From assembly GCF_002288365.1 (NCBI RefSeq), contig NZ_CP016782.1, forward strand, positions 1,240,001-1,304,000: 64,000 nucleotides of DNA, written 5' to 3'. Positions 20,865-31,655 of the stretch are shown in pieces (the stretch's first letter is position 1; every line of letters begins with the position of its first letter). Both the position numbers and the translations under genes were made by a program. Source of the stretch: Candidatus Planktophila limnetica (GTDB taxonomy: Bacteria > Actinomycetota > Actinomycetes > Nanopelagicales > Nanopelagicaceae). The notes beneath the pieces are model-generated. The model worked only from the letters and a program-made list of their open reading frames with translations, was not told where the DNA came from and made no database searches.

Positions 20865-22046
20865 CTATGTTGTAGTAACCGGCAACAACTCTGGAAAAAT
20901 TGGCGCTGCAATTTTTCCAAGAATTCGATCTAACGTGTCCCGAGCTCGCTCGGAGGCGCTATATCTGCGCGGAATCTTATCTGCGATTGCCACAAAAATG
21001 TATTGTCGGTCTTCGGAGTCAACGTAGCCGGCCAAACTCACCGTTCCTGAAAGGGTGCCAGTCTTGCCACGAACGAGGCCCACGGCTTGTGGGGCAGTTG
21101 TTAAGAAGCGCTTTTGCAAAGTTCCTGATACGCCACCTATAGGTAGGCCCTCATAGACCGATACATACTTCGGATCATTTCTAATCTTCATTAACAAATC
21201 AGCGATGGCTTTTGCTGTCACGCGATTTTGTTTTGATAAACCACTGCCATCGGCTACTTCTATTTTGTCTGGATCAATTCCAAAATTTGTCAGCACGGTG
21301 TGAAAAGTATCTGCAACGCCTTGTGTATTAAACGTTTCTCCAGATGTGATCGCAGCTAATCGTGCAAGGCGTTCTGCTAATACGTTATCGCTCCAGAGCA
21401 GCGTCCACTTCACCATTGTTTCAAGCGTTGGCGAAGCCGAAAGAACTAAAGGCTCAGCAGATTGCAACAGCGCATCTTCTGCCGTGATTTTTTCAGCAGT
21501 TGTGCGAATGCCGCGCTTTTTTAAGAATGCTTGCAAATTTGCCAAGTCCTGTGGAAATAAACCTGTATATAAAATCTTTAAGCGCTTTGCATTGCTCTGA
21601 GTTAATTCGTTGTAACGATTGATTGTATTAAAACCCAACCGTGGCAGAGATGTGCGTCCCATCTTCTCTGCTTGAGATTGAATCATTGAGATCCACGGAT
21701 CGTATTCGCCGTTGATCACAATTGTGCCTGGATCAACACCCTTATAAATATTTGTATTAAAAACCTTCTGCGAATCTATATAACTCAGTACCGATGTTGC
21801 AGAGAGTAATTTAATTACGGAAGCCGGCTTGCGCGCTTGTGTTGAGTTACGTTCGAAGATGATTTCACCTGTCATTGCATCCACCACGATCATGGAGGGA
21901 TCAGCTAAGAACTTTGAATCAGAAAGGTTCTGAAAAACTTTAGGGATTGCACTGGGGGCTAGTTTTTCTAACGCCTGCGCAGGGGTCGCAGAAATTACTA
22001 GCGCAAGGGCTAGTAAGAAGCCCAGTGGGCGCAAGCGTTTAATCAT
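20865..22046 (-). CDS. dacB: D-alanyl-D-alanine carboxypeptidase/endopeptidase (PBP4 type)
   Basis: Low-molecular-weight penicillin-binding protein of peptidase family S13 that trims or cuts peptidoglycan peptides. 393 residues from the ATG at 22046, which gives a good signal peptide (FLLALALVISATPAQA). The three active-site motifs are present: SVIK (SxxK), SDN (SxN) in LLWSDNVLAERLA, and KTG in RGKTGTLSGTVSLAGY. An in-frame upstream extension to 22091 would overlap the preceding gene and spoil the signal peptide. A homologue lies close to tilS-hpt-ftsH in Mycobacterium too. Confidence 0.92.
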   Translation of the reverse strand: MIKRLRPLGFLLALALVISATPAQALEKLAPSAIPKVFQNLSDSKFLADPSMIVVDAMTGEIIFERNSTQARKPASVIKLLSATSVLSYIDSQKVFNTNIYKGVDPGTIVINGEYDPWISMIQSQAEKMGRTSLPRLGFNTINRYNELTQSNAKRLKILYTGLFPQDLANLQAFLKKRGIRTTAEKITAEDALLQSAEPLVLSASPTLETMVKWTLLWSDNVLAERLARLAAITSGETFNTQGVADTFHTVLTNFGIDPDKIEVADGSGLSKQNRVTAKAIADLLMKIRNDPKYVSVYEGLPIGGVSGTLQKRFLTTAPQAVGLVRGKTGTLSGTVSLAGYVDSEDRQYIFVAIADKIPRRYSASERARDTLDRILGKIAAPIFPELLPVTTT

Positions 22047-22059
22047 TTTTAGTGAGTAG

Positions 22060-22428
22060 TTACCAGGTGTATGCAATAACAATATTTGCAACAGTAAGGA
22101 CCAGCAGGGTTGCCCAAGTCTTAGTTGTAAATACTGATTTCTTGTTCTGGCGATAGCCGATAAGCAAAATAATGAGAACTATTCCTAGTTTGACTGCAAT
22201 CTTTGTGTTGTCATACAAAGGCCATTCAGCGGCATTTTCTTCATTGAGTGGGTACTGAACTCCCACCATTACTAGTCCTGCGATAAGTGCTGTGGCTGCG
22301 CTGTGAAGCACACCAGCATTGAATTTACGAGGCTTTTTAGATACCTGAAGGAGTAATAAAACTAATACTCCAAGAATTCCAAGCATGTGAAGGATGTATG
22401 CGACTGTATGAATAATTGAGAGGTCCAT
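22060..22428 (-). CDS. Small integral membrane protein
   Basis: Not recognised. 122 residues with four hydrophobic segments (near 5-27, 42-60, 77-92 and 103-121) separated by short polar loops; the first loop is basic (SKKPRKF), suggesting a cytoplasmic side. It lies 13 bases upstream of dacB on the same strand and may be co-transcribed with it, though no functional link is shown. The ATG at 22428 follows a TAAACT box by six bases and the gap to the divergent RNA methyltransferase gene is only 22 bases. Confidence 0.8.
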   Translation of the reverse strand: MDLSIIHTVAYILHMLGILGVLVLLLLQVSKKPRKFNAGVLHSAATALIAGLVMVGVQYPLNEENAAEWPLYDNTKIAVKLGIVLIILLIGYRQNKKSVFTTKTWATLLVLTVANIVIAYTW

Positions 22429-22450
22429 GGATTCAGTTTAGAGTGCAGAC
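22429..22450. promoter_or_regulatory. 22-bp divergent promoter with overlapping -10 boxes
   Basis: Minus-strand box TAAACT (22440 down to 22435) serves the gene starting at 22428. Plus-strand box TAGAGT (22439-22444) serves the gene starting at 22451. The two boxes share the self-complementary TA at 22439-22440, and each lies six bases from its start codon. Confidence 0.65.
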
Positions 22451-23098
22451 ATGGAAAGACCAATGCCGCCAGCCACTATTGGACCAGGTGAATTTTTTCC
22501 TGTCATAGGTGTTGGCCCTCATGAGAAGCCTTGGCCCACCGGTGATCAATTCGATCCAGAGCTTCTTGAAAATGGCGACCGCAGAAATGTTTTAGATCAT
22601 TATCGTTATTGGAAAGTCGAATCAATTGTTGCTGACTTAGATACTAAGCGTCACAAATTACATATTGCAATTGAAAATTGGCAACACGATTTAAATATTG
22701 GCTCCATCGTTCGCACAGCCAATGCCTTTAACGTCACCGCAGTTCACATCGTTGGAAAACGCGATTGGAACAAGCGCGGCGCCATGGTGACCGATAGATA
22801 TCTCTCTGTCATTCATCATCCAACGATTGCTGATTTCCAAAAGTGGTGCCAAGAAAATAACGTGCCAATTATCGGAATAGATAACGTGCCAGGATCTAAG
22901 CAACTCGAATCAGCGCAGTTGCCAGAAACATGCGTACTTTTATTTGGTCAAGAAGGCTCCGGAATGTCTGAAGAGGGCATTGCTGTGTGCCCAGTTATTT
23001 ATGAGATCAACCAATACGGATCAACAAGGTCTATGAACGCATCGGCCGCCGGCGCCATTGCGATGTATCACTGGGCTTTGCAGCACCTGCCACGATAG
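22451..23098 (+). CDS. SpoU/TrmH-family RNA 2'-O-methyltransferase
   Basis: SAM-dependent ribose methylation of tRNA or rRNA. 215 residues of the knotted SPOUT fold: motif 1 HDLNIGSIVRTANAFNV, motif 2 LLFGQEGSGMSEE and motif 3 TRSMNASAAGAIAMYHW. An N-terminal extension of about 60 residues precedes the domain. The ATG at 22451 lies six bases after a TAGAGT box, so it is probably leaderless. It ends four bases from the convergent TPR gene. The exact RNA target cannot be told from sequence. Confidence 0.88.
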   Translation: MERPMPPATIGPGEFFPVIGVGPHEKPWPTGDQFDPELLENGDRRNVLDHYRYWKVESIVADLDTKRHKLHIAIENWQHDLNIGSIVRTANAFNVTAVHIVGKRDWNKRGAMVTDRYLSVIHHPTIADFQKWCQENNVPIIGIDNVPGSKQLESAQLPETCVLLFGQEGSGMSEEGIAVCPVIYEINQYGSTRSMNASAAGAIAMYHWALQHLPR

Positions 23099-29086: not shown

Positions 29087-30007
29087 TTACTTGTACATCG
29101 ATGCCAATGCATCCCTTGCGTTCGTTGGAGAATTCTTTACACCTACAGGATTTTTGAAAATCAATGATCTTTTTATCCCACTTATATGAAACTTCGACAA
29201 CGACTTCCACATGTGCTGGGTGGGATTATACAATTTATAAGTTGGATCTAGTAATTCTTCAAATTTATTTTGTCGGACACGATTCTCTGTCTCGATAAGT
29301 TTCCAGTAAGGTGCGAGCACTTGAATTTTCCAATCATTATCTAGTAATTTGCGCGCAATGCGGTACTCGTTCAAATATATTAGGCTGCGCCGGAAATGAA
29401 AATTTCTAATCCAATTAAAACTAGAAGAAAAATGATTAAATTTATCTTTTTCTAATTTTGCAAAAAGAAAATAGGGTTGTACGTGGTGTACGGGATTGAA
29501 GGATTCTGTTGGAAAAACCAAAACGTTGACTTTTGATTTTTCTAGAACGTTGATTAAGTCAAATATGCCATTCTTTTTCCACACCATTGAATTATTTAGA
29601 TAAAAAAATGAGATTGTTTGGTTACCGTTTAAAGTTAGACTTCTGGCCATGTCGCGCAAAACTCCAAAATCTCGACCAAAACGATTTTTGCGAAAAATGT
29701 AATCTGTGTTTTCAGCAGAATTAAATTCTCCGTTACTAACCAAAATCGTTGAAAATCCCGAAGATTTTGCCTCTTCTAATACCTGTTTATCGTAATCATC
29801 CAATAATCTGCTTTCTGAATGATGTACGTATATGAATATGCGAGATAAATTGAAATCAAAATCTAGTAATTTAAGTTTATTACTATTTGATGATACTAGC
29901 CGATCCATAATCACGACGGGCCATAGCAAAAATGCCAATGTTCGCGCTAAAATACAAATTAAAGCGCCTCTCTCTGAAGACCTTGACGCCTGCACAATGT
30001 TTCCCAT
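29087..30007 (-). CDS. RgpF-like polysaccharide synthesis protein (rhamnan synthesis F family)
   Basis: Likely glycosyltransferase-related protein of surface polysaccharide assembly. 306 residues; the resemblance to the RgpF family rests on IFIYVHHSESRLLDDYDKQV, FRKNRFGRDFGVLRDM and ISFFYLNNSMVWKKN. I chose the ATG at 30007 because a TACAAT box lies exactly six bases upstream; an ATG at 30031 would overlap the divergent gene's start codon and lacks a promoter fit. AT-rich compared with the housekeeping genes, as is the whole 29-38 kb island. Confidence 0.75.
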   Translation of the reverse strand: MGNIVQASRSSERGALICILARTLAFLLWPVVIMDRLVSSNSNKLKLLDFDFNLSRIFIYVHHSESRLLDDYDKQVLEEAKSSGFSTILVSNGEFNSAENTDYIFRKNRFGRDFGVLRDMARSLTLNGNQTISFFYLNNSMVWKKNGIFDLINVLEKSKVNVLVFPTESFNPVHHVQPYFLFAKLEKDKFNHFSSSFNWIRNFHFRRSLIYLNEYRIARKLLDNDWKIQVLAPYWKLIETENRVRQNKFEELLDPTYKLYNPTQHMWKSLSKFHISGIKRSLIFKNPVGVKNSPTNARDALASMYK

Positions 30008-30029
30008 AGAAAGATTGTAGACTTCTTCC
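30008..30029. promoter_or_regulatory. 22-bp divergent promoter with overlapping -10 boxes (second case)
   Basis: Minus-strand TACAAT (30019 down to 30014) is six bases from the ATG at 30007; plus-strand TAGACT (30018-30023) is six bases from the ATG at 30030. The boxes share the TA at 30018-30019, the same geometry as at 22429-22450. Confidence 0.65.
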
Positions 30030-31655
30030 ATGGCACGTGAAACTTCGCTAGTGGATTTAACAGAGCGGGCTTTATCAAGAAATATGGGATTCGAATATCA
30101 CGCGCTAGATGCATTACGTTCAGAAATAGAGGAAAAGAACGTTCACTTAGAACGACGATTTTATCAACTTTTAAATTCCCGCTCATGGAAGTGGACATTG
30201 TTTCTAAGGAAACTTTACGGGGTTTTTGTGCGCGGGGATAAGCTTTTATTATCCTCACTAGTTCTAAGTTTTTTCGGTAATATTATTTCAGATTTTTCTA
30301 ATATTTGTGTTTCAATTACGAAATTTATTCACTACTTTTTGTATTCGATATTTACAGTAAATGGGATCAAAGCAAGGTTTTTGAAGATAGAAGTGTCAAT
30401 GCTCGACGATTTTCCCACCGCAAGGAACAGTTTAAAAAAATCACGATTTGTTAAATGCAGTTCCCAATCTGCCGATATCATACTTCACATCACTGAAGAC
30501 ATATTTTTTTCTCCTTTAACTATTTTTGAATTTGCACGTTCTTGGATTAAATATGATGATAATTCGACTCTTTACTGCGATGTTCTGGATACGCATCAAA
30601 AAAATATGTTTAAGAAGCCAAACTGGAATTCTGTTTATAACTCTTCCATAAAGTTGTTCCCTCCGATTTATTTAGAATCAGCAAAATTTACTAGTTTAAA
30701 TCCTAAAAAATTGCAAACGGTCGTAATTCGTCCATTGGGAAAACTTGGCTTTATTAGAAATATGGCAGTGACTCCACCCGCGACTCCCAGAATTTCGCTT
30801 CCTTCGATTTCTCGAACTAGATCTATTTTTAGCATAGTAGTTCCTACAGCAAATAAGAGAATTTTTCTTAAGGGAAAAGAAAGGTGGCTAATTAGGGATT
30901 TTATAGAAGATGTTAATAGTACTCAAAAAGCTCAATTACCTGAGATAGTCGTTGTACATAATGAATTTATGAGTTCTACTGATCAGCGAGCATTACGTCA
31001 ATATACCAATGTTCGACTAGTGTTATGTTCGCAAAAAACTTTGAATCTTTCTTCCAAAATTAATTTGGGTGTTAGAGAGGCGAGTTGTGAAAAATTAATC
31101 ATTTCTAACGATGATGTTCGGTCTAAATCTTCTGAATGGTTAGATGCCTGTTTGTCTTGGTTGGAAATTGGTTCTACGGGTATCGTCGGACCTCGAATTT
31201 TTTATGAGAATGGGTTGTTGCAGTATGCGGGTGTTGAAGTACTTCATGGAGTTCCACAAATTATTGGGTACAAAAGAGCCGAAAATAGTCTTGGGCTTGG
31301 ATTTTCTTATGTAGTCCCACGAGAAGTTAGTGCTGTTACGGGTGTATTAATGGCCACTAAGAAATCTTTATTCATGAAAATTAAAGGCTGGGATCCTAAA
31401 CTTAAGATAAATTACAATGACATTGATTACTGCCTTCGCGCCCAAACGTTAGGTTTTAAAGTTATTTACGAACCTCGGGCGCAAATATTTCACCTAGAAA
31501 GTGCTAGTCGCGATCTTGGTGTTTCCCATATCCCAGAGGAAAATTTCTTTATTGAAAGATATAAAGATGTGCAACCCAACTGGCCATCTTTAATCTACGA
31601 CAGTGCAGAAAACGCAAATTTGAGTTTTACATGGAGGCAAAATTATGCACTTTAG
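30030..31655 (+). CDS. Glycosyltransferase, family 2-like
   Basis: Transfers a sugar in surface-glycan assembly. 541 residues. The N-terminal third has a coiled-coil stretch (LDALRSEIEEKNVHLERRFYQ) followed by NSRSWKWTLFLRKLYG, a module seen in other envelope enzymes. The GT2 domain begins near residue 270 (FSIVVPTANKR) with the DXD-like LIISNDDV, GPRIFYENGLLQYAGV, and C-terminal NDIDYCLRAQTLGFKVIYEP. Leaderless-type start with TAGACT six bases before the ATG. Ends six bases from a convergent gene. Sugar and acceptor unknown. Confidence 0.82.
   Translation: MARETSLVDLTERALSRNMGFEYHALDALRSEIEEKNVHLERRFYQLLNSRSWKWTLFLRKLYGVFVRGDKLLLSSLVLSFFGNIISDFSNICVSITKFIHYFLYSIFTVNGIKARFLKIEVSMLDDFPTARNSLKKSRFVKCSSQSADIILHITEDIFFSPLTIFEFARSWIKYDDNSTLYCDVLDTHQKNMFKKPNWNSVYNSSIKLFPPIYLESAKFTSLNPKKLQTVVIRPLGKLGFIRNMAVTPPATPRISLPSISRTRSIFSIVVPTANKRIFLKGKERWLIRDFIEDVNSTQKAQLPEIVVVHNEFMSSTDQRALRQYTNVRLVLCSQKTLNLSSKINLGVREASCEKLIISNDDVRSKSSEWLDACLSWLEIGSTGIVGPRIFYENGLLQYAGVEVLHGVPQIIGYKRAENSLGLGFSYVVPREVSAVTGVLMATKKSLFMKIKGWDPKLKINYNDIDYCLRAQTLGFKVIYEPRAQIFHLESASRDLGVSHIPEENFFIERYKDVQPNWPSLIYDSAENANLSFTWRQNYAL

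What the first reader, a model, noticed from the sequence alone, without database searches (positions are those of the whole stretch)
22429..22450. 22-bp divergent gap with two -10 boxes sharing one TA
The genes starting at 22428 (minus) and 22451 (plus) are separated by only 22 bases. Layout is CAT-N6-ANNN-TA-NNNT-N6-ATG: both -10 boxes use the same central TA (22439-22440). Two RNA polymerases cannot occupy this element together, so one site may choose between a membrane protein/dacB transcript and an RNA methyltransferase transcript. Bidirectional bacterial promoters with overlapping -10 boxes have been reported; here both products would be leaderless.
Basis: partly seen in the sequence, partly recalled or inferred. 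Interest (0 to 1): 0.68.

Follow-up and report, generated by a model that had tools for sequence, protein, structure and literature searches.

The report
Two-way promoter inside 22 bases
In a small actinobacterium two genes read in opposite directions appear to start from one 22-base stretch in which the two promoter boxes share the same two letters; related species have kept this layout even where one of the genes was lost, although two-way promoters of this general kind are already known.

Summary
Leaderless starts are common in this genome: TANNNT stands 6 bases before the start in 68 of 417 called genes, against 1 to 8 at distances other than 6 and 7. In 66 distinct genus-level loci the four bases that make both boxes (A, TA, T) are kept 66 of 66 while the spacers vary; the minus-specific A is kept in 0 of 20 more distant loci. 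Six loci changed the inner bases to AAGATAGATT and kept the frame. The minus gene switches between leaderless and leadered, or is lost with dacB taking its place, without loss of the overlap. Seven other gene pairs of the genus share the layout. Best reading: a bidirectional promoter of the known 23-bp class (PMC12825309) serving two leaderless mRNAs. That the site 'chooses' between transcripts is not shown; in E. coli such competition appeared only when one direction was strongly activated. No transcript start has been mapped here, and the bare pattern is only mildly more frequent than chance.

The parts
22429..22450 (.). 22-bp divergent intergenic gap holding both -10 boxes
   Evidence: sequence; exact gap in 36 of 66 genus-level loci
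22439..22440 (.). TA shared by both -10 boxes
   Evidence: sequence; 66 of 66 loci
22439..22444 (+). plus-strand -10 box TAGAGT, 6 nt before ATG; predicted TSS 22451
22435..22440 (-). minus-strand -10 box TAAACT, 6 nt before ATG; predicted TSS 22428 (23 bp from the plus TSS)
   Evidence: its T at -7 (plus-strand A at 22435) is kept in 66 of 66 genus-level loci, 0 of 20 outgroup loci
22416..22421 (+). candidate plus-strand -35 TTGAGA, 17-bp spacer, inside the first codons of the minus gene
   Evidence: 1 such site found, 0.8 expected by chance; TTG at 17 or 18 bp in 34 of 36 loci with the leaderless minus ATG but only 7 of 30 others
22458..22463 (-). weak candidate minus-strand -35 TTGGTC at 17-bp spacing, inside the plus gene
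   Evidence: read from the sequence; not reported by the scan; inference only
22060..22428 (-). 122-aa small membrane protein of unknown family
   Evidence: no family reached its curated cut-off; membrane nature judged from the sequence
20865..22046 (-). dacB-like D-Ala-D-Ala carboxypeptidase (Peptidase_S13, TIGR00666), 13 nt downstream of the membrane gene
   Evidence: start 22046 from the gene caller
22451..23098 (+). SpoU-family RNA methyltransferase, 215 aa
   Evidence: PF00588 E 7.9e-29; no NCBIfam equivalog reached its cut-off

Best explanation
The 22-bp gap is a bidirectional housekeeping-type promoter in which two -10 boxes overlap by a shared TA. [quoted passage not shown] binding in the other orientation melts TAAACT and starts the membrane-protein/dacB mRNA at the A of its ATG, 23 bp away on the other strand. 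Both mRNAs are leaderless. Shown: sequence, spacing, the genome-wide leaderless signal, conservation of exactly the bases needed by both boxes, retention of the overlap through changes and loss of the minus gene. Inferred: the actual transcript starts, the sigma factor, and that two polymerases exclude each other. Not shown: any regulatory choice between the two.
For: TANNNT at spacer 6 in 68 of 417 genes whose starts were called without promoter information. A/TA/T kept in 66 of 66 genus-level loci while the six-base spacers vary; the minus-specific A kept in 0 of 20 more distant loci that have a plus TANNNT, 7 of which have a divergent dacB match within about 110 nt. Six loci read AAGATAGATT in place of AGTTTAGAGT, so both hexamers changed and both stayed TANNNT. 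The minus gene is leaderless in some lineages and carries a longer leader with a Shine-Dalgarno-like stretch in others, the overlap staying. In the 6 loci that lost the membrane gene but kept the leaderless ATG, the remaining reading frame ends in TAATG, TGATG or TAG-ATG at the dacB start (one locus each), 4 nt before a TTG start of dacB (two loci), or is fused in frame with dacB (one locus). Published divergent TSS distances at bidirectional promoters: 18 bp most common, 10 and 23 bp also common (PMC12825309).
Against: No RNA data. The bases between the key positions are more conserved than TANNNT asks (GTT in 60 of 66; after TA, G 66, A 65, G 60 of 66; G after the plus box 66), so another constraint may exist. 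The minus -35 is weak, and the plus TTG at -35 is missing in 23 of the 30 loci without the leaderless minus ATG. The bare pattern is only mildly above a Markov expectation. The 66 loci share descent and are not 66 independent events; several deep nodes of the tree are weak. The 79.5% identity line between genus-level and outgroup was set after seeing the table.
Confidence: 0.85

Rival explanations
1. Regulatory switch: the shared site is selected because firing in one direction suppresses the other, so the cell chooses between methyltransferase and membrane protein/dacB.
For: The geometry makes simultaneous occupancy implausible; steric exclusion at such sites is stated in PMC12825309. The overlap is kept in the whole genus-level set.
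Against: The same layout joins unrelated gene pairs, which suggests compactness rather than a particular logic. The minus product changes (membrane gene absent in 16 of 66) while the overlap stays. In E. coli basal activity was too low for competition in all five promoters tested.
Confidence: 0.12
2. Only the plus promoter is real; the minus box is a by-product of a conserved extended plus promoter AGTTTAGAGTG, and the minus gene is transcribed from elsewhere.
For: AGTT stands before TAGAGT/TAGGGT in 60 of 66 loci; the plus side has the better -35.
Against: The 20 outgroup loci with a plus TANNNT lack the A in 20 of 20. In 50 leaderless promoters of the own genome outside tight divergent pairs, position -16 holds A in 0.28, the background share. 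Six loci lost GTT yet kept the A. dacB stands behind the promoter where the membrane gene is gone.
Confidence: 0.06
3. The near-palindrome CAGTTTAGAGTG is a repressor operator between two divergent genes.
For: 8 of its 12 positions are dyad-symmetric; it is highly conserved.
Against: The degenerate dyad CASTYTARASTG occurs at one place in the 1.33-Mb genome, so no regulon is seen. The symmetry of the key bases follows from two TANNNT boxes sharing TA. One clade keeps A, TA and T but not GTT. None of the four genes scanned is a regulator.
Confidence: 0.04
4. Chance juxtaposition in a compact genome with no selection on sharing TA.
For: Bare pattern counts are only mildly above chance: 5 observed, about 2 expected per genome.
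Against: Conservation of the overlap in 66 of 66 loci through changes in the minus gene; recurrence at eight unrelated gene pairs.
Confidence: 0.03

Closest known systems
Bidirectional bacterial promoters (Warman, Grainger and colleagues; PMC12825309 and PMC10268837 read in part)
   Same: Overlapping -10 elements on opposite strands; predicted TSS distance 23 bp, which PMC12825309 names as one of the common distances (18, 10, 23); sits between two divergent protein genes.
   Different: Both products are predicted leaderless, so the whole intergenic region is the promoter core; the layout is conserved across a genus-level set and through loss of one gene. Those papers rest on mapped TSSs in E. 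coli and Salmonella; here TSSs are predicted.
Leaderless TANNNT-led genes of Actinobacteria (PMC3160421, PMC6448022, PMC10937400; passages read)
   Same: TANNNT about 12 bp upstream of the start codon, no Shine-Dalgarno.
   Different: Two such genes back to back with one shared TA.

Membership tests
Bidirectional promoter | Key -10 positions overlap on opposite strands | tested here: met
Bidirectional promoter | Divergent TSSs 7 to 25 bp apart (definition in PMC10268837) | not testable with these tools
   Predicted 23 bp from start codons and box spacing; no RNA data
Bidirectional promoter | Both RNAs are made from the isolated DNA in vitro | not testable with these tools
   Needs an experiment
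Leaderless gene, plus strand | TANNNT about 12 bp before the start codon, no Shine-Dalgarno in the gap | tested here: met
   the gap has no AGGA, GGAG or GAGG on this strand (sequence)
Leaderless gene, minus strand | TANNNT about 12 bp before the start codon, no Shine-Dalgarno in the gap | tested here: met
   the gap has no AGGA, GGAG or GAGG on this strand (sequence)
Leaderless genes | mRNA 5' end at the start codon | not testable with these tools
   Needs TSS mapping
Operator of a regulon | Site recurs elsewhere in the genome | tested here: not met
   CASTYTARASTG found at one place in the genome, no mismatches allowed

The most novel reading that the evidence does not exclude
In this streamlined lineage CAT-N6-ANNNTANNNT-N6-ATG is a selected, recurrent 28-bp module: two start codons, two transcript starts and two promoters in one element, with a candidate -35 written into the neighbour's first codons. 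When the minus gene of such a leaderless pair is lost, its start codon and first codons stay behind as a mini-ORF that hands ribosomes to the next gene.
Probability: 0.35. Interest if true: 0.55.

Novelty: new variant of a known kind. Interest (0 to 1): 0.42.

Why it matters
It shows how far a genome can compress divergent gene starts, and gives natural variants (gene loss, change from leaderless to leadered, turnover of the inner bases) against which the rules of bidirectional promoters can be tested. It also gives a clean place to ask whether sharing a -10 box matters for regulation or only for compactness.

Tried and rejected
Raw pattern counts as evidence: the reversed-pattern control of the genome search (154 forward against 13 control in 61 genomes, forward counts summed) looks like a 12-fold excess, but it is too favourable, because the reversed pattern needs GTA/TAC in place of ATG/CAT; a Markov model of the own genome expects about 1.5 per Mb. 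I therefore rest on conservation. The same bias touches the controls that follow.

Other spacings in the same 61 genomes: the 18-bp TSS class written as CAT-N5-TANNNTA-N5-ATG gave 38 against 23, with one clearly recurrent family; boxes directly abutting (gap 24) gave 0 sites; boxes one base apart (gap 25) gave 40 against 3, mostly one family. In 111 genomes of the class outside the genus (118 searched, 7 of the genus) the 22-gap pattern gave 42 against 13.

Deletion ends set by the plus -35: I first thought the remains of the lost membrane gene are kept because they hold the plus -35. TTG at 17-18 bp is kept in 5 of 6 such loci, but an alignment to the nearest intact relative shows identity ending just outside it only in L100; it runs on further in L015, L025 and L087, and the relatives used for L074 and L082 are too distant to tell. 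Also 23 of the 30 loci without the leaderless minus ATG lack that TTG, so it may simply reflect the codons of the membrane gene. I lowered the novel reading from 0.4 to 0.35 for this and took the claim out of it.

Clean loss of the membrane gene does occur: 10 of 66 loci lack both the gene and the ATG at spacer 6; of these L065 keeps a short leadered stub.

Site at 129439 of the own genome: fits the pattern before cysS, but the upstream gene is on the same strand, so it is not a divergent pair. Repressor operator: not supported. Family of the small membrane protein: no Pfam or NCBIfam family reached its cut-off. No structure prediction was run.

Papers on divergent leaderless pairs with overlapping boxes: none seen in the listings (20 of 89 papers listed; 20 of 287; 20 of 29; 15 of 23; 15 of 785; 10 of 36; 1 of 1); these lists are cut short and cover open-licence papers only, so this is no proof of absence. 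The 2021 founding paper on bidirectional promoters was not in the listing and was not read; I know it through the papers that cite it.

Full report
What is there. The gap 22429-22450 reads GGATTCAGTTTAGAGTGCAGAC. To the left is CAT of a 122-aa minus-strand gene, to the right ATG of a 215-aa plus-strand gene. TAGAGT (22439-22444) and, on the other strand, TAAACT (22440-22435) both stand exactly 6 bases before their ATG and share TA 22439-22440. The plus gene is a SpoU-family RNA methyltransferase (PF00588); the minus gene is a small, by its sequence membrane-spanning, protein of no known family, followed after 13 nt by a dacB-like carboxypeptidase. Several of the 80 related records carry titles such as Candidatus Planktophila or Candidatus Nanopelagicaceae; others are labelled Streptomycetaceae or Bifidobacterium breve, which I take for mislabelled assemblies. 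I therefore place it in the Nanopelagicaceae; this is inference.

Leaderless genes are common here. In 464 kb of the genome (window plus 20 stretches) a simple codon-usage caller that ignores promoters found 423 genes; among 417 with enough upstream sequence TANNNT stands at spacer 6 in 68 and at spacer 7 in 18, against 1 to 8 at each of the other distances from 1 to 34. This agrees with published leaderless genes in Actinobacteria: TANNNT about 12 bp before the start (PMC3160421, passages), and 24% of transcripts leaderless in Mycobacterium smegmatis (PMC6448022, passages). In 50 such promoters outside tight divergent pairs, position -16, where the minus-specific A sits here, is A in 0.28, no more than background.

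Tight divergent pairs. The 464-kb sample has 47 divergent neighbours; the tightest pairs with a TANNNT at spacer 5-7 on both called starts stand 18, 22, 22, 25, 25, 26 and 33 bases apart, and a third 22 appears in L163 if an alternative start is taken. Two of these three 22s lie in stretches chosen because they held pattern sites; the third is the finding. For ATG/ATG pairs at spacer 6/6 with both ORFs of 80 aa or more the gaps are 17 (1), 22 (4), 25 (2) and 44 (1) (same bias).

Chance. See the observation check: the bare pattern is mildly enriched; the pattern with two long ORFs is concentrated at spacer 6/6. The reversed-pattern control of the genome search exaggerates the excess.

Conservation. 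The SpoU protein brought in the best 30 loci of the unnamed relatives (the own one included) and the best 80 of named genome contigs, 110 in all. 92 have a TANNNT 5-7 bases before a start; 86 are distinct; 66 are above 79.5% protein identity and form one clade on a tree built with 8 of the 20 outgroup loci (support 0.947). In these 66 the bases A (minus -7), T and A (shared) and T (plus -7) are invariant, 66 of 66, as are two G's at +2 and +6 counted from the shared T; the spacers vary. The ten-base core is AGTTTAGAGT in 59, AGTTTAGGGT in 1 and AAGATAGATT in 6 (L031, L033, L092, L094, L099, L120); in the last group both hexamers changed and both kept the TANNNT form. Of the 20 more distant loci 0 keep the A, although all have a plus TANNNT, and although 7 of them (L105, L107, L112, L115, L126, L128, L136) have a divergent dacB match within about 110 nt.

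What happens to the minus gene. Of the 66, 30 have the membrane gene with ATG at minus spacer 6; 20 have it elsewhere (one of them, L034, at spacer 7); 6 lack it but keep an ATG at spacer 6; 10 lack it and lack that ATG. By eye the 19 other loci with a longer leader show a Shine-Dalgarno-like stretch before the start, such as AGAAAGG or AAGGAG (not scored). So the minus mRNA has moved between leaderless and leadered while the overlap stayed; parsimony on the tree gives 4 changes of start type and 10 of membrane-gene presence, rough numbers because several nodes are weak.

Remains after gene loss. In the 6 loci that lost the membrane gene but keep the leaderless ATG (L015, L025, L074, L082, L087, L100) a stub of 8 to 22 aa remains (five loci), or dacB is fused in frame (L074, 393 aa). 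The stub ends in TAATG (L100), TGATG (L082) or TAG-ATG (L015), or 4 nt before a TTG start of dacB (L025, L087). I read this as leaderless translation of the stub followed by re-initiation at dacB; this is inference. In the 10 loci that lack both, dacB has a longer leader, so clean loss is possible once the mRNA is leadered.

The -35. TTGAGA lies 17 bp before the plus -10, inside the minus gene (1 such site found, 0.8 expected). TTG at 17 or 18 bp is present in 34 of 36 loci with the leaderless minus ATG and in 7 of 30 others. So either the plus promoter leans on it only in the leaderless layout, or it reflects the first codons of the membrane gene; my data do not decide.

Recurrence. In 61 genomes of the genus the pattern occurs 154 times, in 55 of 61 genomes. 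Of 75 sites retyped from the cut-off list, 57 fall in 10 core sequences present in two or more genomes. One of the ten (before cysS) is not a divergent pair in the own genome. For the other nine I checked one or a few loci each; they are eight gene pairs: SpoU/membrane protein, TauE/ThiS-like, MgtE_N/EamA, aldehyde dehydrogenase/hydrolase, DUF554/YitT-like, glycine transporter/DUF4389, SRAP/EPSP synthase, and FAD oxidoreductase/choline kinase (the YitT match is below Pfam's cut-off, as is ThiS in L058 though not in L165). The TauE/ThiS pair carries two different cores, ACCATACAAT and ACCCTATACT, in related pairs (63% and 47% protein identity): again inner bases turn over and the frame stays. 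Against this, in L039 and L040 the ORF on one side is only 6 and 27 aa. The functions do not suggest a common regulatory logic.

Mechanism and literature. PMC12825309 states that divergent TSSs at bidirectional promoters are most often 18 bp apart, with 10 and 23 bp also common, and that two polymerases cannot bind at once (introduction); the predicted distance here is 23. It also reports that basal activity of all five tested promoters was too low for competition, which appeared on activation. PMC10268837 defines the class by TSSs 7 to 25 bp apart. So the element fits a known kind; what is new here is that both products are predicted leaderless, that the layout recurs and is conserved across a genus-level set, and the remains after gene loss.

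Noticed in passing
window 30005-30032: A second site of the same pattern in the window, between a 306-aa minus ORF (314 aa from its first ATG) and a 541-aa plus ORF with a weak glycosyltransferase match. Its core was seen only in this genome among the 75 sites retyped, and the codon-usage caller did not call these two genes, which suggests atypical composition.
   Followed up: partly
L147 4898-4928 (own genome 202898-202928): A related class: divergent leaderless boxes one base apart (AGCCTAATAGACT, 25-bp gap), recurrent in the genus (40 sites in 32 of 61 genomes); gene pair not identified.
   Followed up: partly
own genome 808279-808301 and relatives: The only clearly recurrent family of the 18-bp TSS class (CACAGTAGGSTA core) in the genus search; gene pair not identified.
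   Followed up: no
window 22060-22428: The small membrane protein has conserved His, Lys and Pro-Arg positions in 32 aligned relatives but no known family; it is missing in 16 of 66 loci beside dacB.
   Followed up: partly
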